Shown here one piece after another: positions 17,580-26,757 of a DNA stretch of 26,757 bases. The notes beneath the pieces were generated by a model that had not been told where the DNA came from, searched no databases, and saw only the letters and a program-made list of their open reading frames with translations. Where the stretch lies: IMG/VR virus record IMGVR_UViG_3300050010_000163, positions 1-26,757 of that record; one strand, 5' to 3'. The position numbers were made by a program, and so were the translations under genes. Numbering within the stretch: position 1 is the first letter of the stretch; each line of letters starts with the position of its first letter. Origin of the DNA: a virus.

Positions 17580-18680
17580 ATGCGAGCCGCACTGATCTTA
17601 CTCTTCGTCTCATCCGGCATGGCTTTCGGGCAGTCGCCTACCATCTCCTGCGTCGGCACGCCTGGCAATACGACGGGCGTGTACCAGCAGCAGTGCAACG
17701 CCAGCACCGGGGCAACCTACGTGTGTGGTGCCAGATCCGGCTGCACTGTCGCGTCGGATTGGGGGATGTCAACGGCGCTGGATTTCAATACGCAGGTCAA
17801 GAATAGGACATCTGGAGGCGTGACCTACACCGCTCCCGGCGCAGGGGCCGTGCCGCGAACAGTGCAGGGCCATCTTTCCGACACGCCGTACGTAGCCGCC
17901 GACTATGCCGGGTCCGACCTCGGGGCGAAGATCAACGCGGCTTATGCGGCGCTCCCCTCAACTGGAGGGCATATCGCCGTATCGAAAGGAACCTACTCGT
18001 TTTCTACCCCCATCGTCCTCGGCACGGCGATGAAGCCCGCGTACCTCGATTGCGACCCGGCGACCACGATCATGACGTACACCGGGACGGGCGCGGCGAT
18101 CACCCTGGATTGGGGATGGCTGGACTCCAACGATCAACACGAGCACGGCGCGGGGATCATCGGCTGCTGGCTCAAGGGACCAGGAGGCACTTCGGTAGGT
18201 GTCGCCATGCAGGGACCGAACGGCGGAGTTATCCATCCGGTGCTCGACCGTATGAAGATCTGGGGTTTTGGTAAGGGCATCAACTTCTCGCTGGACGGCG
18301 GGGAGCCCAATACCTCTTTCTTTGCCACCATTCGAGACACCGGCATCGCGTACAACACCCTTGGCATCGAGATCAACACTTCGATAGAGGCGATTCACAT
18401 CATCACCTCTGACTTCTACGCCAACTCACAGGACATCCACATGTTTGGAACACCGATGGATGTGTATGCCTTTGGGTGTTCCTTCGATGGTCTGGACGGC
18501 AGCCTCACAAACCCATTCATCGAGATCGACCAAGGATATTTCTTTGACTACGGAAGTCATTACGAAAACTCCGGCAAAAAGTCCGCACACTTCATCGAAA
18601 ACAACGGCGGAATCTTTGTAAAAGTCGGAGTAAAACTTCGCCGCATATCCGTGTCGGGTGGAATAACATGCAGCGCTTAA
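17580..18680 (+). CDS. Beta-helix tailspike with N-terminal Sec signal peptide
   Basis: This 366-residue protein begins MRAALILLFVSSGMAFGQSP, a short basic start, hydrophobic core and likely cleavage after FG, which is unusual for a virion protein. From about residue 100 a pectate-lyase-like right-handed beta-helix is visible: DYAGSDLGAKINAAYAALPS, GGHIAVSKGTYSFSTPIVLG, then AAITLDWGWLDSNDQHEHGA and repeated I/V-x-x-N turns. Such folds serve as polysaccharide-degrading or -binding tailspikes. Catalytic acids cannot be assigned by eye. It sits between the spike and wedge genes, so it is part of the baseplate operon. The signal peptide suggests derivation from a secreted host enzyme, or export before assembly. 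Confidence 0.7.
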   Translation: MRAALILLFVSSGMAFGQSPTISCVGTPGNTTGVYQQQCNASTGATYVCGARSGCTVASDWGMSTALDFNTQVKNRTSGGVTYTAPGAGAVPRTVQGHLSDTPYVAADYAGSDLGAKINAAYAALPSTGGHIAVSKGTYSFSTPIVLGTAMKPAYLDCDPATTIMTYTGTGAAITLDWGWLDSNDQHEHGAGIIGCWLKGPGGTSVGVAMQGPNGGVIHPVLDRMKIWGFGKGINFSLDGGEPNTSFFATIRDTGIAYNTLGIEINTSIEAIHIITSDFYANSQDIHMFGTPMDVYAFGCSFDGLDGSLTNPFIEIDQGYFFDYGSHYENSGKKSAHFIENNGGIFVKVGVKLRRISVSGGITCSA

Positions 18681-18889
18681 CCATCACCGGGACGATTGAT
18701 GGCTACAACGCTGTCTTCGCGGTGAGTCCTGCCCCGACGTTCGTCAAGGTGTATCGCAACACGCTCTTGCAGGCGCCGAACCAGGACTACTCGCTTGGGA
18801 CGGCCGGCGCGTCCAGCCTGCCAGTCGAGTTTATGCCAACGTCCATCCCGCAACCGGGCGACGCGCTCGTGGCTGTAGGTGAGGTCTAA
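18668..18889 (+). CDS. Small beta-module protein, paralogue of the wedge N-terminus
   Basis: This 73-residue protein overlaps the tailspike end by 13 bases. It reads LTITGTIDGYNAVFAVSPAP, then VKVYRNTLLQAPNQDYSLGT and PQPGDALVAVGEV. This is a widespread phage surface module (T-G-x-I-[ND]-G-x-N-x-x-F ... L-x-x-N-x-x-L-Q ... D-Y ... P-x-x-G-D). The first 70 residues of the following gene have the same pattern. It is probably a small fibre or baseplate attachment protein, and the two genes arose by duplication or module exchange. The stop overlaps the next ATG by one base. Confidence 0.65.
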   Translation: MQRLTITGTIDGYNAVFAVSPAPTFVKVYRNTLLQAPNQDYSLGTAGASSLPVEFMPTSIPQPGDALVAVGEV

Positions 18890-19587
18890 TGTCCGTTTAC
18901 TTGGCGGTGTACGGCGCGATTAACGGGCAGAACACGGCATTCACGATGAGCGCATTGCCGGACCCGTCCTACTTGGAGCTTTACAAGAACGGGCAGTTGC
19001 AGCCGGGCGCGGATTATTCCTACATCCTGAACAGGATCAGTTGGCTGAATCCTTCCACGATTCCGAACGGTTCGGACTCGCTGATCGCGATCACCGATTG
19101 GGCAACACCGATCCCATCCAACCTGCCGGCCAATCCAAACCTTGGGACGGGTGGCGTCATCACCGTGCGCGCGCTAAGCGTGGACGGAGATCCGATGCGC
19201 GGCAATGGGCTGGCGAACTTCCTAGGGAACATTGATGCAGTGGGCCAGATCATCGCCACGCGGCTGAAGTTACTGGCGGGCGAAGTGTTCTGGAACGCGT
19301 CTGAAGGGACGCCGCTATTCCAAAGCCTGCTTGGGGTCTCCACCAACTCGCAAGCCGTGGCGCTGATCCTGCGCAACCGGATCTTGGGGACTCCGTACGT
19401 GACGGGGATCTCATCGCTGGTGGTCAAGTACGGACCAGCGGGCCGGACATTCGCGTTCTCAGCGGTGGTGCAGACGGCGTTCGGCGCGCTAACCGTGGGC
19501 AATGCGCCTTCCAGCCAGACGTTCGGCGGGGCCAACGGAACGTGGGGGACGGCGCAAGGAACATGGGGAGGCGTACAGCAATCATGA
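18889..19587 (+). CDS. Baseplate wedge protein (gp25/W-like) with N-terminal beta module
   Basis: This 232-residue protein is a fusion. Residues 1-70 (VYGAINGQNTAFTMSALPDP, YLELYKNGQLQPGADYSYIL) repeat the module of the preceding gene. Residues of about 105-205 fit the gp25/W-type wedge family: GNIDAVGQIIATRLKLLAGE, VFWNASEGTPLFQSLLGVST, then LILRNRILGTPYVTGISSLV and AFSAVVQTAFGALTV. This family includes T4 gp25 and P2 gpW and links the sheath to the baseplate. The C-terminal 25 residues are a Gly/Thr/Trp tail (TFGGANGTWGTAQGTWGGVQ). It precedes a fibre and the J-like gene, as in other contractile-tailed phages. Confidence 0.75.
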   Translation: MSVYLAVYGAINGQNTAFTMSALPDPSYLELYKNGQLQPGADYSYILNRISWLNPSTIPNGSDSLIAITDWATPIPSNLPANPNLGTGGVITVRALSVDGDPMRGNGLANFLGNIDAVGQIIATRLKLLAGEVFWNASEGTPLFQSLLGVSTNSQAVALILRNRILGTPYVTGISSLVVKYGPAGRTFAFSAVVQTAFGALTVGNAPSSQTFGGANGTWGTAQGTWGGVQQS

Positions 19588-20732
19588 AACTCCGAATCAT
19601 TCTGATATCGATCGTTCTCGCCGCGGCCGCCTGGGGACAGGCGTGCAAGGGGACGCCCGATCCGCGAACGTGGAGCGGAACATGGGCTGGCGGGACGACG
19701 TTCGCTTCATGCAACGTGGTGTTCTACGCGCCAAACTCTTCGGCCTACGTGAGTCTGCAAGGCGGGAACCTGGGCAACGAGCCCGACACGTCGCCTACTT
19801 GGTGGACGCTGCTCTACGGCTCGCCGGTGTTTTTACAAAGCACCACACCGCTTCAAGGATCTCAGATTGCGCTCGATTACAATTTTGCCTATGCGCTGAA
19901 TGCGCAGCCAGCCTCCGTTCCGTACACCGGGGCCACGGGGAACGTTAACCTGGGGACGCACTCGCTGACGGCGCAGGCGCTGACGTTGGCACCTTCGTTT
20001 TTGATGTCCGTGGGTGCCGGCTCGACGGGAGGAAACTTCTTTTTGGGGAGCGGGGGACAGACCAACACGACCGGAACCTATAATGCAGGGGCTGGATTCG
20101 ATGCGCTCTTTTCGAATACCACCGGAGAATATAATTCAGCGACCGGGAGTTATTCGCTATATTCGAACACGAGCGGAGCATCCAACACAGCATCCGGGGC
20201 ACAGGCACTTTTCAATAATACGAGTGGTGGAGCTAATACCGGCCTTGGCCTGAATGCCCTTTTCTCTTCTACGACAGCCAACTTCAACACCAGCGTCGGG
20301 GGATACTCGCTCTATAACAACACCACGGGAGCATCCAATTCTGCTGTCGGCCATTTCTCGCTCTATAACAACACCACGTGCAGTTTCAACACGGGGATTG
20401 GGAGAAACGCGGGGCAGTTTCTTCGGGATGGTTCAACAATAAATCAAACACCAGCATCATCCGTGTATGTGGGCTATAACGTTGAGGCGTACGGCGCTGG
20501 AGACGCCAATGAAATAGTGATCGGAGCGAACGCAATCGGCCTCGGTAACAACACAGCACAGGTAGGTGATGCGTCCGTCACGACACTCGGCGTGGGCACG
20601 GTCTCATGGTCGCACGGGACCGGAGCCCCTGGCGGTACGTGTGTGAACGGAAGCATCTACACCGCGACGAACGGGACAACGACGGGACTACTTTGGGTCT
20701 GTGGGTCCAGCACATGGCAGTCAATTAAATAA
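19584..20732 (+). CDS. Repeat fibre protein with Sec signal peptide and 17-residue repeats
   Basis: This 382-residue protein starts at ATG 19584, overlapping the wedge stop by four bases. The first residues, MKLRIILISIVLAAAAWGQA, form a clear signal peptide with probable cleavage after WG. The N-terminal part has aromatic-rich segments (DTSPTWWTLLYGSPVFLQST). From about residue 161, seven 17-residue repeats follow (N-T-[TS]-G-x-x-N-[TS]-x-x-G-x-x-[AS]-L-[FY]-[SN]), resembling the beta-roll head repeats of trimeric adhesins such as YadA. The C-terminus (VNGSIYTATNGTTTGLLWVC) is a small tip domain. It is likely a trimeric host-binding fibre. The export signal is unusual for a phage protein and suggests a secreted-protein ancestor. 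Confidence 0.7.
   Translation: MKLRIILISIVLAAAAWGQACKGTPDPRTWSGTWAGGTTFASCNVVFYAPNSSAYVSLQGGNLGNEPDTSPTWWTLLYGSPVFLQSTTPLQGSQIALDYNFAYALNAQPASVPYTGATGNVNLGTHSLTAQALTLAPSFLMSVGAGSTGGNFFLGSGGQTNTTGTYNAGAGFDALFSNTTGEYNSATGSYSLYSNTSGASNTASGAQALFNNTSGGANTGLGLNALFSSTTANFNTSVGGYSLYNNTTGASNSAVGHFSLYNNTTCSFNTGIGRNAGQFLRDGSTINQTPASSVYVGYNVEAYGAGDANEIVIGANAIGLGNNTAQVGDASVTTLGVGTVSWSHGTGAPGGTCVNGSIYTATNGTTTGLLWVCGSSTWQSIK
20064..20415 (+). repeat. 51-bp tandem repeats encoding the fibre's 17-residue units
   Basis: Seven units (the last partial) of about 51 bp lie within the fibre gene. Neighbouring units can be nearly identical; for example CTCGCTCTATAACAACACCA occurs twice exactly one unit apart. This gives a substrate for slippage and length variation of the fibre. 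Confidence 0.8.
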
Positions 20733-20744
20733 AGCGAGGCCAAT

Positions 20745-22151
20745 ATGGCGTACCAGCCCCCTTCGATTGGATCAGACGGATTCAGCATACCCTCCTATCA
20801 GGCCATCCTCGCGTGGCTCGATCAGAACTACACTTCAATTTTCGGCGCCAGCGTTTACTTGGGGAGCGACAGCAGCGACCAGCAGGACATAGCGATCAGA
20901 TCGCTCCAGGCAGCCAATACGAACCAAGCGCTCCAGGCGATCTACCTCAGCTTCAATCCACTGACCGCCATCGGTGCATCCTTGGACCTGATCGGCATGT
21001 TGATCGGAACACGCCGGGATGCAGCCACCAATTCGACTGTGGTTGTCACACTGACAGGGAATCCAGGAACGGTAATCACGAGCGGAGTGGTTAGCGACAC
21101 AAACGGAAATTACTGGAACCTTGGATCGCCAGCCACCATCGGCGGCGGGGGGACAGTGAACGTCATCGCGACCGCGCAGAACGTCGGGGCAATCACGGTC
21201 AACATCGGGGCGGTGACCACCATCGTGACGCCGACGGCCGGTTGGACATCGGTTACGAACAGCGCAGCGGGCGTCCCTGGCGTTCCGGTGGAAGCCGACT
21301 CCCATTACCGGGCACGGCTCCTGATATCGCAGTCCCAGCCGTCCCTGGCGCTCAGAACAGGCACAGCATCGAAGGTGGCCGGCGTCTCGGGCGTGACGCG
21401 ATCTATCGTCTACGAGAACCAGTACGGGAATACGACCAGTTACGGTGTCTGTAACACGGCGAACGTGGATAGCGCGAGCCCGCCGAACGATAACGTCATC
21501 ATCCTGGAGACCGGGTATCCTTTCGATGCCACGATGGTTGGTAAAACCGCAGTCATCGGCGTAACGTCCTACACGATTGCCAGTTATGTTTCGCCAACCG
21601 AACTCATATTGACCACGCCGCCGGGGACGCAGACCGGCGTGCCCTTCTACATCGGGGACGGCATCGCGCTTGGTCCGAAGAACTCGATCACATGCGTGGT
21701 GGAAGGCGGCGCCGCGGTTGCCATTGCACTGGCCATCTACACGAATAAGTGCCCAGGCTGCTTGACGAATGGGACGACCAGCACCACGGTGACGGACACG
21801 AACAATCCAACCGTAGCGATGGTGATTTCCTTCGACGTGCTGGCCTACCTGCCCATTTACGTGTCGCTGAATGTCCATCCGCTCCAGGGCTTCACCAGCG
21901 CGACCCAGGCCGCCATCATCGCCAACATCGTGGCGTATCTGAACAGCCTAGGCATCGGGCATAGCGTGGTCTGGAGCGAGCTGTTCGGCGCGGCCGTAAT
22001 GGCGAACCCGAATCCGGCCGCGCCGCTGTTCTCTATCCATGCGCTGACGTTGGGTGTGGCTCCGGGGCCTGCTGGCACGGCAGATGTGCCCGTTTCGTAT
22101 AATGTGGCTTCGTCGGGGATCACCGCTGACGTAATAGTGGAGCTGGTATAA
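20745..22151 (+). CDS. Baseplate J-like protein with inserted domain
   Basis: This 468-residue protein has an N-terminal region typical of J/gp47-like baseplate proteins (SIPSYQAILAWLDQNYTSIF, then YLSFNPLTAIGASLDLIGML with IGTRRDAATNS). The beta-rich middle includes AAGVPGVPVEADSHYRARLL and LRTGTASKVAGVSGVTRSIV, which matches the conserved E-s-D-x-x-y-R-x-R segment of the family. A segment of about 75 residues (NDNVIILETGYPFDATMVGK to PFYIGDGIALG) appears inserted before GPKNSITCVVEGGAAVAIAL. The C-terminal helices (SATQAAIIANIVAYLNSLGI, then VVWSELFGAAV) are also typical. It forms the inner wedge ring with the gp25-like and DUF2612 proteins. Confidence 0.85.
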   Translation: MAYQPPSIGSDGFSIPSYQAILAWLDQNYTSIFGASVYLGSDSSDQQDIAIRSLQAANTNQALQAIYLSFNPLTAIGASLDLIGMLIGTRRDAATNSTVVVTLTGNPGTVITSGVVSDTNGNYWNLGSPATIGGGGTVNVIATAQNVGAITVNIGAVTTIVTPTAGWTSVTNSAAGVPGVPVEADSHYRARLLISQSQPSLALRTGTASKVAGVSGVTRSIVYENQYGNTTSYGVCNTANVDSASPPNDNVIILETGYPFDATMVGKTAVIGVTSYTIASYVSPTELILTTPPGTQTGVPFYIGDGIALGPKNSITCVVEGGAAVAIALAIYTNKCPGCLTNGTTSTTVTDTNNPTVAMVISFDVLAYLPIYVSLNVHPLQGFTSATQAAIIANIVAYLNSLGIGHSVVWSELFGAAVMANPNPAAPLFSIHALTLGVAPGPAGTADVPVSYNVASSGITADVIVELV

Positions 22152-22154
22152 GCG

Positions 22155-22298
22155 ATGCCTGATTTCTGTTTTACGCTGACGGCCAAACCGGAACTGGTGG
22201 AATCCAAGGACGGGAATACTGATTTTGTGGCGCTCACACTATTGGTGAATGACGAAGAGATCGAAACTTCGATTGTACTGGTGGACGATTTGCTATGA
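22155..22298 (+). CDS. 47-residue protein of unknown function
   Basis: This short frame starts three bases after the J-like stop and overlaps the next start by four bases (ATGA), a spacing that supports real translation. It encodes MPDFCFTLTAKPELVESKDG then NTDFVALTLLVNDEEIETSI and VLVDDLL, an acidic, probably single-sheet protein. I recognise no family. Its place between J-like and DUF2612 genes suggests a small baseplate accessory. Confidence 0.6.
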   Translation: MPDFCFTLTAKPELVESKDGNTDFVALTLLVNDEEIETSIVLVDDLL

Positions 22299-22891
22299 GC
22301 CCACAACCCGCAAACTACTACCTGTCCCTGCTGCCATCGCAATATCGCGGGGAGCCCGCGATGACGGCATGGCTCACAGCGAACTTGCAGCTCTACCAGG
22401 ACGTGCTGGCGTGCGCCATTTCGTTTCCGCGAGCGTTCTCAATCACCGATGCAGTGGGTCCGCAGCTCGACGTGCTTGGCTCAATCATCGGCCAGCCGCG
22501 GCAAGTAGGATTTCAGCCGACGCCGGTTGGCTCGCCACCTGAAGCGGTGAGCCCGGTCCTGGACGATCCAACGTATCGGCTCTTGCTCCAGGCCACCATC
22601 TTGCAGAACCACTGGGACGGAACCATCCCAGGCGTTCTGGCTATCTGGAAGGCGCTGTTCCCTGGCGGGACAATGATCTTCACCGACAACCAGGATATGA
22701 CGGTGTCGATCTACGTGGCTGGGGCGTTCACGTCGCAACTCGTGATCGACCTCGTAATTCACGGGCTTATGCTCCCGAGGCCAGAGGGCGTTAATTTCAT
22801 CTTTACTTTTGCGGAACTCCCGATGCTTGGGTTCGACTCCGACTCTGCGTTTATCGCCGGTCTAGATCTCGGCAAGTTTGTCGCCAGGTAA
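22295..22891 (+). CDS. Baseplate/tail protein, DUF2612 family (gpI/gp48-like)
   Basis: This 198-residue protein contains the family signature: NYYLSLLPSQYRGEPAMTAW, AVGPQLDVLGSIIGQPRQVG, then SPVLDDPTYRLLLQATILQN with HWDGTIPGVLAIWKALFPGG and FTDNQDMTVSIYVAG. DUF2612 proteins follow J-like genes and connect the baseplate to tail fibres. The C-terminus (LGFDSDSAFIAGLDLGKFVA) is the usual short tail. The next gene is a fibre, as expected. Confidence 0.85.
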   Translation: MSPQPANYYLSLLPSQYRGEPAMTAWLTANLQLYQDVLACAISFPRAFSITDAVGPQLDVLGSIIGQPRQVGFQPTPVGSPPEAVSPVLDDPTYRLLLQATILQNHWDGTIPGVLAIWKALFPGGTMIFTDNQDMTVSIYVAGAFTSQLVIDLVIHGLMLPRPEGVNFIFTFAELPMLGFDSDSAFIAGLDLGKFVAR

Positions 22892-22902
22892 CAGGAAAAA
22901 AT

Positions 22903-23778
22903 ATGTCAACCAACTTTCTTCCGTTCAATATCGGATTGGCGAATGCCGAGTCGGATGCCACGTATTCGACCGATCCGCTTCGCACGGGTGGCGCTGTAAC
23001 GGATGGCGTACTGCCCTCTCCGTTCACCAACAAGGCATGGTATCAGTGGTCGATTTTCGTTGCGGCCATGGCCCAATCTCTCGCCAACAAGGGATACGTC
23101 GTCTCTGACGCCGATTTCTCCAATCTGGTCGCGGTCCTGTCCAACATCAGGACGCTTGCCGACGTGTCCGGCGGCATCCAGACCGTCACGTACTCCTCGT
23201 CCGTCCTTTTTAACGCCGCCTCATACAACTCGTTCGATCTGACGCTGACGGGCAACGTCGCATCCTCGAACATCACTGGGCAGGCCGCCGGCCAAACGCT
23301 GTTGTTCATCATCGCGCAGGATGGGACCGGGGGCCGGACGTTCGCCTGGCCGTCGTCGCTCACCAATCCGGGGGCGATCTGCTCGCTGGCCAACAGCATC
23401 ACCATCCAAATGTTCATCGTGCGGCCGAGCGGCGCCATTGTGCCAATCACACAGGCGCTCTGGATTAGCGGGTCCGGTTTGATTGTTCAGCTTCCAGCAG
23501 TGGTCTCTATTAGTTCCAGCGGAAACGTCGCCGGCACGGCACAGGAGATCGTCGAACTCGTGGACTCATCCGGCGGGGCAATCACGCGGACGCTTTTCTC
23601 TGCGGTTGGTCGGGCGGGATTCAAGGTCAACATCAAGAAAACCGATGCGAGCCAGAACGCCGTGACCATCGCTGGGTATTCCGGCCAAACCATTGATAGG
23701 CAGGCCAGCATCGCGGATTCTACGCAAGGCGCGTCGTACCAGATGGTCACCGACGGGGCCAATTGGTGGATTATCTAG
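22903..23778 (+). CDS. Tail fibre protein
   Basis: This 291-residue protein starts after AGGAAAA. The N-terminal part (NFLPFNIGLANAESDATYST, PLRTGGAV, PSPFTNKAWYQWSIFVAAMA and the DADFSNLVAVLSNIRTL segment) resembles the baseplate-attachment domain of fibres that follow DUF2612 genes. The remainder is a Ser/Thr/Val-rich beta region with two similar halves (QDGTGGRTFAWPSSL; KKTDASQNAVTIAGYSGQTI) and ends GASYQMVTDGANWWII, a motif common at the ends of phage fibres. Receptor specificity cannot be read from sequence. Confidence 0.75.
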   Translation: MSTNFLPFNIGLANAESDATYSTDPLRTGGAVTDGVLPSPFTNKAWYQWSIFVAAMAQSLANKGYVVSDADFSNLVAVLSNIRTLADVSGGIQTVTYSSSVLFNAASYNSFDLTLTGNVASSNITGQAAGQTLLFIIAQDGTGGRTFAWPSSLTNPGAICSLANSITIQMFIVRPSGAIVPITQALWISGSGLIVQLPAVVSISSSGNVAGTAQEIVELVDSSGGAITRTLFSAVGRAGFKVNIKKTDASQNAVTIAGYSGQTIDRQASIADSTQGASYQMVTDGANWWII

Positions 23779-23786
23779 GAGGAATT

Positions 23787-24521
23787 ATGAGCTATCAACC
23801 GGCGACCAACATCCAACGGCAGCAGATTTTCACCGGCAGCGGCACGTTCACGCCGAGTGCAGCACTTCTCCTTAATGGGGGATGGGTCGATGTCACAGTC
23901 GTCGGCGGCGGCGGCGGCGCTAGCGTGAACACCGGGTCCGGTATCACCATGGGTGGTGGTGGTGGCGGCGGCTCCGTGGTCCGGCAATCGATCTCCATCT
24001 CAGGCCCCACTACGGTAACCGTTGGCCCCGGTGGTGCTGGTGGGGCAGCCCCAGGGCCAAGCGCGGGGTCAACCGGGGGGACATCCTCCTTCGGATCGAT
24101 CTCGGCCACCGGCGGAAACGGCGGCACCAGCGGTGGTGGTGGCGGCAAATCTGGCGGTAGCACCTCAGCATCCGCTGGCGCAACCCCAGGGGGCGGAGGC
24201 GGCGCCGGTGGCGCAGCGCAGTTCAGCGGTGACGTGCTTGCAGCAGCCCTTGATCCAGACACGATATACCCCACCATGGCCAACGGCGGCCCTGGGCTTA
24301 ATGGCTATGGCGGCGGCGGCGGCGGCGTTATCGCATCTCCAGACAACGTTGGTGTGGTGGTGTACGGACTCGGATCCAACGGCGGCGGGAGCGGCGGGAA
24401 CTCATCTGGTGTCGTGAACGGCCAGGCCAATACCGGCGGCGGTGGCGGGGCTAGCGGGAACGATGCAGTGAACGGTGGGAATGGCGGCAGCGGCTACTGT
24501 GTGGTTTCGTGGGTAGAATGA
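23787..24521 (+). CDS. Glycine-rich tail fibre adhesin
   Basis: This 244-residue protein starts at ATG 23787, five bases after a perfect AGGAGG (23777-23782); an earlier in-frame ATG at 23763 lies inside the previous gene and has no such support. The N-terminus (QRQQIFTGSGTFTP) and the VDVTVVGGGGGASVNTGSGI stretch, repeated poly-Gly runs, and the end NGGNGGSGYCVVSWVE match Gly-rich phage adhesin domains. Such domains form a polyglycine-helix sandwich with variable loops at fibre tips. It probably determines receptor binding with the preceding fibre. Poly-Gly GGC/GGT tracts make the gene prone to slippage and recombination. Confidence 0.8.
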   Translation: MSYQPATNIQRQQIFTGSGTFTPSAALLLNGGWVDVTVVGGGGGASVNTGSGITMGGGGGGGSVVRQSISISGPTTVTVGPGGAGGAAPGPSAGSTGGTSSFGSISATGGNGGTSGGGGGKSGGSTSASAGATPGGGGGAGGAAQFSGDVLAAALDPDTIYPTMANGGPGLNGYGGGGGGVIASPDNVGVVVYGLGSNGGGSGGNSSGVVNGQANTGGGGGASGNDAVNGGNGGSGYCVVSWVE

Positions 24522-24524
24522 GAT

Positions 24525-25205
24525 ATGCCGTTCAAAGCCATGCCGGGAATCTATGAGATTTCCTGCTCCGCAACCGGGAAGCTGTACATCGGTTCAGCGA
24601 AAAACATCAAGGAGCGGTGGAAGATCCACAAGCAGAGGCTACGAGCCGGAGACCACCACTGCGGCCATCTGCAAAATGCCTGGAACAAATACGGAGAAAC
24701 CGCATTCACCTTTTCCATGCTTGAGATGGTTGCGGATGTGAAACAGCTTGTTCCGTATGAGCAGGCGTGCATAGATGAACTTTTAAGCACTGGCTTATTG
24801 TTCAATTCTGCGCATGTGGCTGGCAGTACGCTGGGCGTCAGGCCATCAGCGGAGACGCGCCGTAAAATGGCACTCATCCACAAAGGGAATAAATACAATC
24901 TTGGTCGCAAGGCATCCGAAGAGACACGCCGGATATTGAGCCTATCGCACATGGGGCGCGTTGGCCCATGGAAAGGCAAGAAGCGCTCCGAAGAATGGAA
25001 GCGCCAGATCAGCGAGAAGGCGAAGGCGCGCGTGTTCACCGAAGAGCATCGGCGCAAGATAAAGGAGGCGTTGGCTGGCCGCTACACTCACGGCGAGAAC
25101 CATCATTGGTTTGGCCGCAAACATTCTCCAGAAACCTTGGCAAAGATGAGCGCTGCACGTACGGCATGGCACGCCCGTAAAAAGGCTGAGGCTGTCGCGG
25201 TGTGA
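24525..25205 (+). CDS. GIY-YIG homing endonuclease with NUMOD3-type repeats
   Basis: This 226-residue protein has the GIY-YIG catalytic domain: PGIYEI (Gly8-Ile9-Tyr10), LYIGSA (Tyr21-Ile22-Gly23), catalytic Arg31 in ERWKIH, LQNAWNKYGETAFTFSMLEM and Glu79 in YEQACIDELL. The C-terminal half has several NUMOD3-like DNA-binding repeats (RPSAETRRKMALIHKG, KASEETRRILSLSHMG, KRSEEWKRQISEKA, HSPETLAKMSAARTAW). This arrangement is typical of free-standing segD/segE-like phage homing endonucleases. It follows the fibre genes and overlaps the glycosyltransferase start by four bases. It is the second homing endonuclease in the window. Confidence 0.9.
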   Translation: MPFKAMPGIYEISCSATGKLYIGSAKNIKERWKIHKQRLRAGDHHCGHLQNAWNKYGETAFTFSMLEMVADVKQLVPYEQACIDELLSTGLLFNSAHVAGSTLGVRPSAETRRKMALIHKGNKYNLGRKASEETRRILSLSHMGRVGPWKGKKRSEEWKRQISEKAKARVFTEEHRRKIKEALAGRYTHGENHHWFGRKHSPETLAKMSAARTAWHARKKAEAVAV

Positions 25206-25981
25206 TCGACCCCAGTCGCCTCATCAGTGCGATCATGCCCGCGCGCGGGAGTCCGGCTATGGCCGCTGCTGCCCTGGAGTGCTGGCGGCGGCAGACGTGG
25301 CTGGACGTGGAGTTGGTGATTGTGGACGATTCGGACGCGCCAGCATTCCCGGAGTGGGCCAGGAAAGCCAAAGAAATGGCCGCCGCTGGCGCACAGGCTG
25401 GCTGTGGCGCGTCGGCGGGAATCCAGCCGCCGAACGGTGCCACCAGCCTCACCGAAGGCAGCGTACGGTATTTCTGCCTTCCAGATAAGATCACTATTGG
25501 GGAAAAGCGGAATCTGGCATGTGCTTTGGCGTACGGCGAGTTCTGCGCCCACTTCGACAGCGACGACCACTCCGCCCCAGGCCGCCTAGCCGATCAAATG
25601 GAGCACATGCGCTCCGGCGTGTCCGTAGTGGGCTACCATTCAATGCTCTGGACGGACGGAGTGGGTTGGTGGCGGTACGATGGCCCGCTGTTCGACGGCG
25701 CCTACGGGGCTCTTGGAACATCGTTCCTGTACCGCAAATCCTGGTGGGAGACGCATCACTTCCCACGCGGGCCGGTCAATCGAGTGGACGCGGAGGATAA
25801 CCCGTTCGTGCAGGCCGCGATGAATGCTGGCGTATTCGTTGGGGTGCCGGCGCGGGAGATGATGGTGGCGCGGATACACCCGGACAATACCAGCCCAAAG
25901 TCAACGGGCGGAATGCGATGGCATCCGGTTCAAGATGCTTCCACATTGCAGCGATATCGGGCTATGCTAGGAGAATTATGA
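25202..25981 (+). CDS. Family 2-like glycosyltransferase
   Basis: This 259-residue protein starts with GTG overlapping the previous stop (GTGA). It has a GT-A fold pattern: ISAIMPARGSPAMAAAALEC, ELVIVDDSDAPAFP with Asp42-Asp43, GEKRNLACALAYGEFCAHFD and the metal-binding DSDD at residues 119-122. The later LGTSFLYRKSWWE and DAEDNPFVQAAMNAGVFVGV contain the usual acceptor-side acidic residues. An Ala/Gly-rich insertion of about 30 residues separates the two halves of the nucleotide-binding domain. It may modify host surface sugars, phage DNA or virion glycans; the target is unknown. The following gene was an epimerase, which supports a sugar pathway. Confidence 0.8.
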   Translation: MIDPSRLISAIMPARGSPAMAAAALECWRRQTWLDVELVIVDDSDAPAFPEWARKAKEMAAAGAQAGCGASAGIQPPNGATSLTEGSVRYFCLPDKITIGEKRNLACALAYGEFCAHFDSDDHSAPGRLADQMEHMRSGVSVVGYHSMLWTDGVGWWRYDGPLFDGAYGALGTSFLYRKSWWETHHFPRGPVNRVDAEDNPFVQAAMNAGVFVGVPAREMMVARIHPDNTSPKSTGGMRWHPVQDASTLQRYRAMLGEL

Positions 25982-26028
25982 ACATCCTCGTTACCGGCGG
26001 AAACGGATTCATCGGGCGCCACGTTTGA
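25978..26028 (+). pseudogene. Truncated NAD-dependent epimerase/dehydratase, first 16 codons
   Basis: MNILVTGGNGFIGRHV is the classic N-terminal Rossmann strand and glycine-rich loop (TGGNGFIG) of nucleotide-sugar epimerases and dehydratases, normally about 300 residues long. It has AGGAG (25969-25973) upstream and overlaps the glycosyltransferase stop by four bases, so it was the next gene of that operon. It ends in TGA at 26026-26028. That TGA is also the first three bases of the repeat array, so the coding sequence is lost exactly at the array boundary. Confidence 0.85.
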
Positions 26029-26450
26029 TGCTCTCGTCTACAATGGTTCACTCGGGCTTCATGGTACTCTCCTGCTATGTGGTTCACTCGGGCCTTTTGG
26101 TGCTCTCTAAGCAAATGGTTCACTTCGTCTCTCTTGGTGCTCTCATCATCACTGGTTCACTCGCCCCACTTGGTGCGCTCCGTGTGCATGGTTCACTTGG
26201 ACTGCCTGGTGCTCTCATCATCACTGGTTCACTCCTGATGCCTGGTACTCTCAGCACCCCTGGTTCACTCGCCGGTTTTGGTACTCTCATCCACGATGGT
26301 TCACTCGCCGCTTTTGGTACTCTCAAGATAACTGGTTCACTCCTGATGTCTGGTACTCTCTGAATCCCTGGTTCACTCTCCGCCGTTGGTGCTCTCCGGG
26401 CTTATGGTTCACTCGCTCTTCATGGTACTCTCGAATCCAATGGTTTATTT
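26026..26450. repeat. TIGR-like array: two alternating 10-nt repeats with 8-nt variable spacers
   Basis: Repeat A, TGGTTCACTC, occurs at 26044, 26080, 26116, 26153, 26189, 26225, 26261, 26297, 26333, 26369 and 26405. A degenerate copy, TGGTTTATTT, is at 26441. Repeat B, TGGTACTCTC or TGGTGCTCTC, occurs at 26062, 26098, 26135, 26171, 26207, 26243, 26279, 26315, 26351, 26387 and 26423. A degenerate TGATGCTCTC is at 26026. Every gap is exactly 8 bases except one of 9 (26126-26134), so the full period is 36. Gap sequences differ: after A, for example, gggcttca, gggccttt, gccccact, ggactgcc; after B, for example, ctgctatg, taagcaaa, cgtgtgca, agcacccc. This matches what I recall of TIGR arrays (edge repeat, spacer, loop repeat, spacer; ~36-nt guide RNAs) and not CRISPR. 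The minus-strand gene beside it suggests minus-strand transcription, where the repeats read GAGTGAACCA and GAGAGYACCA. Confidence 0.9.
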
Positions 26451-26757
26451 CATCGGCCAGTTTGGCGGGGCCAGCAGGTCCATGTGGCCCATGTGCTCAA
26501 TGACGTAAGGCAGTGCAGGCGGTTGGCCGGTCTCGGACTCCCAAGCCACCCATTGCCAATGAGCCAAGAACAGCTTGACCGTCCAGCGTTTCGCCCGTGC
26601 GTGGATATGGGCCGGGGGCAGGAAGCCTTTGGAGTAGTAGGAATACGCATCGGTGTCCTTGCCAATTTTGTACTTGTCGAGCTTGGCCGCCGCCTGGTCC
26701 GCGAGCGCGCCAGATTCGTTGCGCTTTTGTTCGTAGTCCTTGCGAATGAGGTAGAGT
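26445..26757 (-). CDS. C-terminal part of a candidate Tas-type (array partner) protein, cut by window edge
   Basis: On the minus strand an open frame enters from the right edge and ends in TAA at 26447-26445. It gives 103 residues beginning LYLIRKDYEQKRNESGALAD and containing QAAAKLDKYKIGKDTDAYSY, then YSKGFLPPAHIHARAKRWTV, KLFLAHWQWVAWESETGQPP and ALPYVIEHMGHMDLLAPPNW. Codon use and a charged-helix, aromatic-rich pattern look like a real folded domain, and no frame on the + strand is comparable. The stop codon lies inside the last degenerate array repeat, so gene and array directly adjoin. Tas proteins of TIGR systems carry a Nop5-like RNA-binding region; the helical G-x-x-P-x-x-x-x-x-x-A-R/K pattern is compatible with such a domain or with the C-terminus of an IS110-type transposase. 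The identification rests mainly on adjacency. Any nuclease domain would lie upstream, outside the window. Confidence 0.55.
   Translation of the reverse strand, partial: LYLIRKDYEQKRNESGALADQAAAKLDKYKIGKDTDAYSYYSKGFLPPAHIHARAKRWTVKLFLAHWQWVAWESETGQPPALPYVIEHMGHMDLLAPPNWPMK

What the first reader, a model, noticed from the sequence alone, without database searches (positions are those of the whole stretch)
26026..26450. Dual-repeat, dual-spacer array with a 36-nt period, consistent with a TIGR guide-RNA array
Two different 10-nt repeats alternate about 23 times at a spacing of exactly 18 nt (one 19-nt exception), each followed by an 8-nt variable segment. CRISPR, iteron, minisatellite and coding repeats do not have this layout. 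From memory, TIGR-Tas arrays have edge and loop repeats flanking two short spacers per ~36-nt tigRNA, and occur in phages. The array adjoins a candidate protein gene on the minus strand.
Basis: partly seen in the sequence, partly recalled or inferred. Interest (0 to 1): 0.97.

Follow-up and report, generated by a model that had tools for sequence, protein, structure and literature searches.

The report
Phage TIGR guide-RNA array with Tas protein
A phage, probably of soil Acidobacteriota, carries a TIGR-Tas system: a tandem array of dual-spacer guide RNAs next to the gene (cut off by the contig end) for the RNA-guided DNA-binding protein that uses them. It is a clear new member of a family described in 2025, whose natural targets are still unknown.

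Summary
At 26026-26450 two 10-nt repeats alternate 23 times (12 loop, 11 edge) at 18-nt steps, with one 19-nt step, plus a half-edge fused to a stop codon. The adjoining minus-strand frame (26445-26757, cut by the contig end) is the C-terminus of a Tas protein: NCBIfam TIGR_Tas_endo E=1.8e-10, PDB TasR 9mty E=3.7e-7. IMG/VR phages with the same repeats carry complete ~280-aa nuclease-free Tas (TasA) well over the family cutoff, and one models onto TasH/TasR cryo-EM structures. Arrays lie on the tas strand in 64 of 64 cases. Edge repeats keep a covarying internal pair (13 of 13 consensus sequences) that loop repeats lack, as published for TIGR. So this is a new member of a known kind, partly truncated: a sister phage has an intact epimerase gene where this array ends mid-unit.

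Two by-products matter more. (1) Across 72 loci, spacer halves are reused in register with different partners (17 identical same-type reuses, 0 cross-type), suggesting half-unit exchange. (2) A TasA prophage of Acidobacteriaceae KBS 96 has one guide matching 16/16 an excisionase-like gene of a second, satellite-like prophage in the same genome (chance ~0.02). No targets were found for the window's own spacers.

The parts
26445..26757 (-). tas gene, C-terminal 103 codons plus TAA stop; the N-terminal part (about 170-200 aa by comparison) lies beyond the contig end. Inferred TasA (Nop domain, no nuclease).
   Evidence: NF052498 TIGR_Tas_endo E=1.8e-10, profile 157-214/215; PDB 9mty TasR E=3.7e-7; 63% identical to Tas of a Solibacteraceae MAG (L106) and of phage L059; relatives have no N-terminal nuclease
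26441..26450 (-). 5'-degenerate first edge half-repeat (AAATAAACCA), overlapping the tas stop codon TAA
   Evidence: sequence; the same arrangement (stop codon TAG followed by CCA, then the first spacer) in KBS 96 locus L105
26026..26450 (-). TIGR dual-repeat array: edge GAGTGAACCA (11 full copies), loop GAGAGYACCA (12 copies), 8-nt spacers A and B
26405..26440 (-). first unit after the half-edge: spacer A TTGGATTC (26433-26440), loop (26423-26432), spacer B TGAAGAGC (26415-26422), edge (26405-26414)
26145..26152 (-). spacer A GTGATGAT, identical to the spacer A at 26217-26224 but paired with a different spacer B (half-unit reuse)
26217..26224 (-). spacer A GTGATGAT, second copy
26126..26134 (-). 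single 9-nt spacer (AGAGAGACG) that causes the one 19-nt step
26026..26035 (-). last loop repeat (GAGAGCATCA), at the junction with the broken epimerase gene; no terminal edge or terminator follows
25978..26028 (+). first 16 codons of an NAD-dependent epimerase gene (MNILVTGGNGFIGRHV*), cut by the array
   Evidence: intact in sister phage L246; identical in the window up to 26027

Best explanation
This is a TIGR-Tas locus of the nuclease-free TasA type in a contractile-tailed phage, probably of Acidobacteriota. The tas gene and array lie on the minus strand and are probably co-transcribed, because the array starts on the tas stop codon (inferred). The precursor would be cut inside each edge repeat into about 36-nt tigRNAs (half-edge, spacer A, loop, spacer B, half-edge). 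Each would be held by a TasA dimer through box C (CCA) and box D (GAG) motifs (inferred from solved homologues). [quoted passage not shown] It would thereby block transcription or replication of a rival mobile element (inferred, least certain). The copy in the window has an array cut short at its 3' end by recombination into a phage epimerase gene; whether it is active is unknown.
For: Array anatomy and statistics. Tas C-terminus by profile and by solved-structure sequence. Nineteen IMG/VR stretches with the same repeats, most with complete Tas ORFs at 170-224 bits against a cutoff of 100. There are 478 Tas relatives in IMG/VR, and most loci kept have GAxxGAxxCA-type 36-nt arrays beside tas. 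Array orientation equals tas orientation in 64 of 64 arrays; the edge internal pair at positions 4-7 is kept in 13 of 13 distinct edge consensus sequences through C-G, T-A and A-T, against 1 of 20 loop consensus sequences. In the window all 11 edge copies pair and none of 12 loop copies does. A relative's TasA model (pLDDT 79.6) has its 11 best PDB matches in TasH/TasR, then IS110. Mechanism: PMC12045711. Lead on role: the KBS 96 match.
Against: The tas gene is incomplete, so its N-terminus (TasA, TasH or TasR) and integrity are not seen, and the fragment alone scores 41 bits against a cutoff of 100. No promoter or terminator was recognised. The array lacks its 3' edge. No target was found for the window's spacers, and 956 spacer pairs gave no excess over shuffled pairs in 2.4 Mb of Tas-phage DNA. 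The role therefore rests on one suggestive match in another genome.
Confidence: 0.9

Rival explanations
1. It is a decaying TIGR locus: the array and tas fragment are a recombination remnant inserted in the epimerase gene and no longer function.
For: The array ends mid-unit at a junction with a broken epimerase gene that is intact in sister phage L246. The last loop repeat has lost its 3-8 pair. No terminal edge or terminator is present.
Against: All 11 edge copies and 11 of 12 loop copies keep their pairing positions, and the tas frame is open to its stop codon. A lost terminator need not silence upstream units.
Confidence: 0.2
2. The Tas is a nuclease form (TasH or TasR) rather than TasA, so targets would be cut.
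For: The N-terminus is beyond the contig end. The NCBIfam model is named endonuclease and the best PDB sequence match is TasR.
Against: The nearest relatives (L106, L109, L110, L059, L076) and the same-repeat phages have short N-termini without HNH or RuvC. Pfam finds only the IS110-type Transposase_20 match in L001 Tas.
Confidence: 0.07
3. The junction is an assembly or amplification chimera joining a TIGR phage to an unrelated phage.
For: Metagenomic contig. The sister phage sequence switches abruptly at 26027, close to the contig end.
Against: Only about 2 nt are shared at the junction, whereas assembly chimeras normally need long shared words (general knowledge). A real illegitimate recombination looks the same.
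Confidence: 0.2
4. It is a repeat-coding stretch, minisatellite, iteron set or CRISPR array.
For: A plus-strand frame (26025-26363) is open through part of the array.
Against: The 19-nt step breaks the frame; two different repeats alternate with variable 8-nt spacers; Rfam gives no match; and the Tas gene adjoins.
Confidence: 0.02

Closest known systems
TIGR-TasA systems (Faure et al. 2025, PMC12045711; e.g. FpTIGR)
   Same: Dual 10-nt repeats (published range 8-12 nt), two spacers per 36-nt unit, 5'-truncated first edge, array on the tas strand, solo-Nop Tas in relatives, phage location
   Different: Spacers of 8 nt (most published arrays have 9); 3' end of the array truncated; tas gene incomplete in the contig
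SpTIGR-TasH of Salicola phage CGphi29 (NC_020844)
   Same: 8-nt spacers, 36-nt period and closely similar repeats (edge AAGCGAGCCA, loop AAGACAACCA)
   Different: TasH carries an N-terminal HNH nuclease (published). The Salicola Tas is only a distant sequence relative: 59 bits to the TasA profile, and a weak match between the window fragment and TasH in the PDB (E=0.68)
TaTIGR-TasR (PDB 9mty)
   Same: C-terminal Nop sequence (E=3.7e-7) and the box C CCA motif at the 3' end of both repeats
   Different: RuvC nuclease domain, 9-nt spacers, box D UG rather than GAG
IS110/IS621 bridge-RNA recombinases
   Same: Share the Nop-like fold with Tas
   Different: DEDD transposase domain and a single bridge RNA, not an array

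Membership tests
TIGR-Tas (dual-repeat type) | two distinct alternating 8-12 nt repeats separated by about 9-nt spacers (8 nt in SpTIGR) | tested here: met
   10-nt repeats, 8-nt spacers, 23 full copies
TIGR-Tas (dual-repeat type) | adjacent gene for a Nop-domain Tas protein | tested here: met
   C-terminal fragment only: NF052498 E=1.8e-10, 9mty E=3.7e-7; complete Tas in same-repeat phages. The family's 100-bit cutoff is not reached by the truncated fragment itself (41 bits).
TIGR-Tas (dual-repeat type) | box C/box D motifs shared by edge and loop; edge has an extra internal pair that covaries | tested here: met
   GAG..CCA in both repeats; pair 4-7 in 11/11 edges and 0/12 loops of the window; 13/13 against 1/20 consensus sequences across loci with three pair types
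TIGR-Tas (dual-repeat type) | array begins with a 5'-truncated edge | tested here: met
   AAATAAACCA at 26441-26450 on the tas stop codon
TIGR-Tas (dual-repeat type) | array ends with a 3'-truncated edge and a terminator (described as typical) | tested here: not met
   ends mid-unit at the epimerase junction, no terminator-like site; relative L059 has both. Typical rather than obligatory, explained by truncation.
TIGR-Tas (dual-repeat type) | processing into 36-nt tigRNAs | not testable with these tools
   needs small-RNA sequencing
TIGR-Tas (dual-repeat type) | tandem-spacer DNA targeting, A and B on opposite strands | tested here: inconclusive
   no target for the window's spacers; one 16/16 match for a related array in KBS 96
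TasA subclass | no HNH or RuvC domain N-terminal to Nop | tested here: inconclusive
   N-terminus beyond the contig end; relatives lack nuclease domains
CRISPR-Cas | single 25-36 nt repeat with spacers of similar length | tested here: not met
   two 10-nt repeats, 8-nt spacers

The most novel reading that the evidence does not exclude
TasA-type TIGR systems of Acidobacteriota phages are anti-satellite or anti-prophage repressors: their guides bind regulatory genes of co-resident mobile elements (as in KBS 96), and the arrays diversify without an adaptation machinery by in-register exchange of single spacer halves between repeats.
Probability: 0.3. Interest if true: 0.8.

Novelty: new member of a known kind. 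Interest (0 to 1): 0.5.

Why it matters
TIGR-Tas is a recently described RNA-guided family whose biological role, natural targets and way of gaining spacers are stated as open questions by its discoverers (PMC12045711). The window itself adds one well-documented phage member and a sister-phage comparison of the site. The comparative work prompted by it gives two testable leads on those questions: half-unit reuse of spacers, and a perfect guide match to a co-resident satellite-like prophage in a sequenced isolate.

Tried and rejected
Nop Pfam family PF01798 in the window: no match; that model does not reach Tas. Single-protein searches for near relatives of the fragment in phages and IMG/VR: none. 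Target search of spacer pairs (A.rc(B), gaps 0-2) in loci and whole Tas-phage contigs, 956 pairs against 2.4 Mb: no excess over shuffled pairs or wrong geometries. One window unit scanned in IMG/VR: 25 matches against 18 for the wrong-geometry control, unrelated contexts, not significant. Rfam: nothing. PADLOC: nothing. Coding, CRISPR, iteron and minisatellite readings rejected (see rivals). One Halomonas NO4 spacer pair in its own genome: no match. First unit of KBS 96: no match. In a tree of the short C-terminal region the Salicola TasH falls next to the window fragment, but on a very long branch (distance 2.3 against 0.69 to the nearest TasA, support 0.65), so this is ignored.

Full report
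Observation. The array at 26026-26450 is real. Two 10-nt repeats alternate: 12 copies of TGGTRCTCTC type and 11 of TGGTTCACTC type, 22 steps, of which 21 are 18 nt and one is 19 nt. A degenerate copy follows at 26441-26450. Shuffled controls never reach the observed repeat counts, and 36-nt self-similarity is 62% in the array against at most 38% elsewhere in the window.

Neighbouring gene. The minus-strand frame 26445-26757 runs off the contig end. Its 103 residues match NCBIfam NF052498 TIGR_Tas_endo (E=1.8e-10, profile positions 157-214 of 215), PHROG 4285 'transposase' and the solved TasR 9mty (E=3.7e-7). The stop codon TAA lies inside the first, 5'-degenerate edge repeat (AAATAAACCA). KBS 96 locus L105 has the same arrangement, a TAG stop followed by CCA and the first spacer.

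Relatives. A pattern search for the repeats in IMG/VR found 19 stretches. Most carry complete Tas ORFs of about 280-310 aa beside long 18-nt-step arrays. All 28 phage records tested and the KBS 96 genome pass the Tas family cutoff (170-228 bits against 100). An alignment search found 478 Tas-coding stretches in IMG/VR and 15 in bacterial and archaeal genomes. The closest to the window fragment come from Solibacteraceae and Bryobacterales MAGs and from phages L059 and L076 (59-63% identity), so an Acidobacteriota host is likely (inference). None of the nearest relatives has an N-terminal nuclease, hence TasA (inference for the window). The AlphaFold model of L001 TasA (pLDDT 79.6) has its 11 best PDB matches in TasH/TasR complexes, followed by IS110 recombinases.

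RNA anatomy. In tas-oriented loci the array strand is always the tas strand (64 of 64). On that strand the window's repeats read GAGTGAACCA and GAGAGYACCA. Both end in CCA, the published box C, and both start with GAG, which occupies the box D position (inference). Position 3 pairs with position 8 in both. Position 4 pairs with position 7 only in the first, which makes it the edge repeat under the published rule. Across loci this edge pair is present in 13 of 13 distinct consensus sequences in three forms (C-G, T-A, A-T), while loop repeats have it in 1 of 20. In the window, 11 of 11 edges and 0 of 12 loops have it. The Salicola TasH array (AAGCGAGCCA / AAGACAACCA, 8-nt spacers) is built the same way.

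Mechanism. From the published work, tigRNAs of 36 nt are cut within edge repeats, are bound by a Tas dimer, and target DNA with spacer A on one strand and spacer B on the other. The 8-nt 3' overhangs made by TasR fix the target as A followed by the reverse complement of B. A nuclease-free TasA would bind and bend DNA without cutting. Transcription, processing and binding are not shown for this locus.

Site. Sister phage L246 (79-94% DNA identity over aligned parts of 17738-26027) has the same glycosyltransferase gene followed by an intact NAD-epimerase gene. At the start of the epimerase gene the window is identical to it until ...CACGTTTG (26027) and then enters the array in the middle of its last loop repeat. 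The array therefore lost its 3' end, including terminal edge and terminator, in a recombination that broke the epimerase gene; an assembly chimera is not excluded. L059 shows the intact form, with a truncated edge and a strong hairpin.

Spacer evolution. Among units from 72 loci, identical spacers recur within an array 17 times at the same position type (A with A, B with B) while the other half differs, and never across types. Allowing one mismatch the counts are 56 against 5. In label-swap permutations none of 500 reached the observed difference. The window shows it too: spacer A GTGATGAT occurs twice with different partners, and B pairs GACATCAG/GGCATCAG and AAAGCGGC/AAACCGGC are near-identical. 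The simplest reading is exchange of half-units through recombination in the edge and loop repeats (inference).

Targets. 956 spacer pairs show no excess of A.rc(B) matches in 2.4 Mb of Tas-phage DNA, so there is no sign that these phages target themselves or each other. Five units of the KBS 96 prophage array were searched in 121 Acidobacteriaceae genomes, and a sixth in its own genome. One gave an exact 16/16 gap-0 match, its only match, in its own genome at 6329962-6329977. That site is in an HTH_17/excisionase-like gene of a second integrated element of about 8 kb with integrase, XRE regulator, small terminase, capsid and protease genes. The chance of an exact gap-0 hit for six units is about 0.019 (0.056 if gaps 0-2 are counted). 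A second unit matches 14/16 about 0.9 kb away (chance about 0.022, or 0.065 with gaps 0-2). That second search was made after the first hit was seen. This is a lead for targeting of a rival prophage or satellite, not proof.

Verdict. A genuine TIGR-Tas locus, new member of a known kind. The window's own array has no identified target and may be partly degraded. The comparative by-products are the more interesting part.

Noticed in passing
window 25978-26035; L246:8789-9722: The TIGR array cuts an NAD-dependent epimerase gene that is intact in a sister phage; the junction lies within the last loop repeat.
   Followed up: yes
window 24525-25205: GIY-YIG/NUMOD3 homing-endonuclease gene between the tail genes and the glycosyltransferase, absent at the same place in sister phage L246 (window 24521 joins 25232 there).
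   Followed up: partly
L105 array and L265/L271 (G029:C1:6329962-6329977): Spacer pair TAAAAGCA/TTCGATTC of the KBS 96 prophage TIGR array matches 16/16, in the expected geometry, an excisionase-like gene of a second, about 8-kb satellite-like prophage in the same genome; another unit matches 14/16 about 0.9 kb away.
   Followed up: partly
arrays of 72 loci, e.g. L001, L052, L063, L081, L084, window: Spacer halves are reused within arrays in register (A with A, B with B) with different partners, far above the cross-type rate.
   Followed up: yes
L069:5754-7295; L008, L018, L010, L098, L099: Very long TIGR arrays (80 repeats, about 40 units, in L069), above the 5-15 units described as typical; several phages carry multiple arrays, some on both sides of tas.
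   Followed up: no
L110:8803 onward: A ParB-like gene directly follows tasA in a Bryobacterales MAG, resembling the tasParB operons mentioned in PMC12045711 (judged by eye from the sequence).
   Followed up: no
L113:5361-5769: A TIGR-like array with a 34-nt rather than 36-nt period next to a Tas relative in a Woesearchaeota MAG.
   Followed up: no
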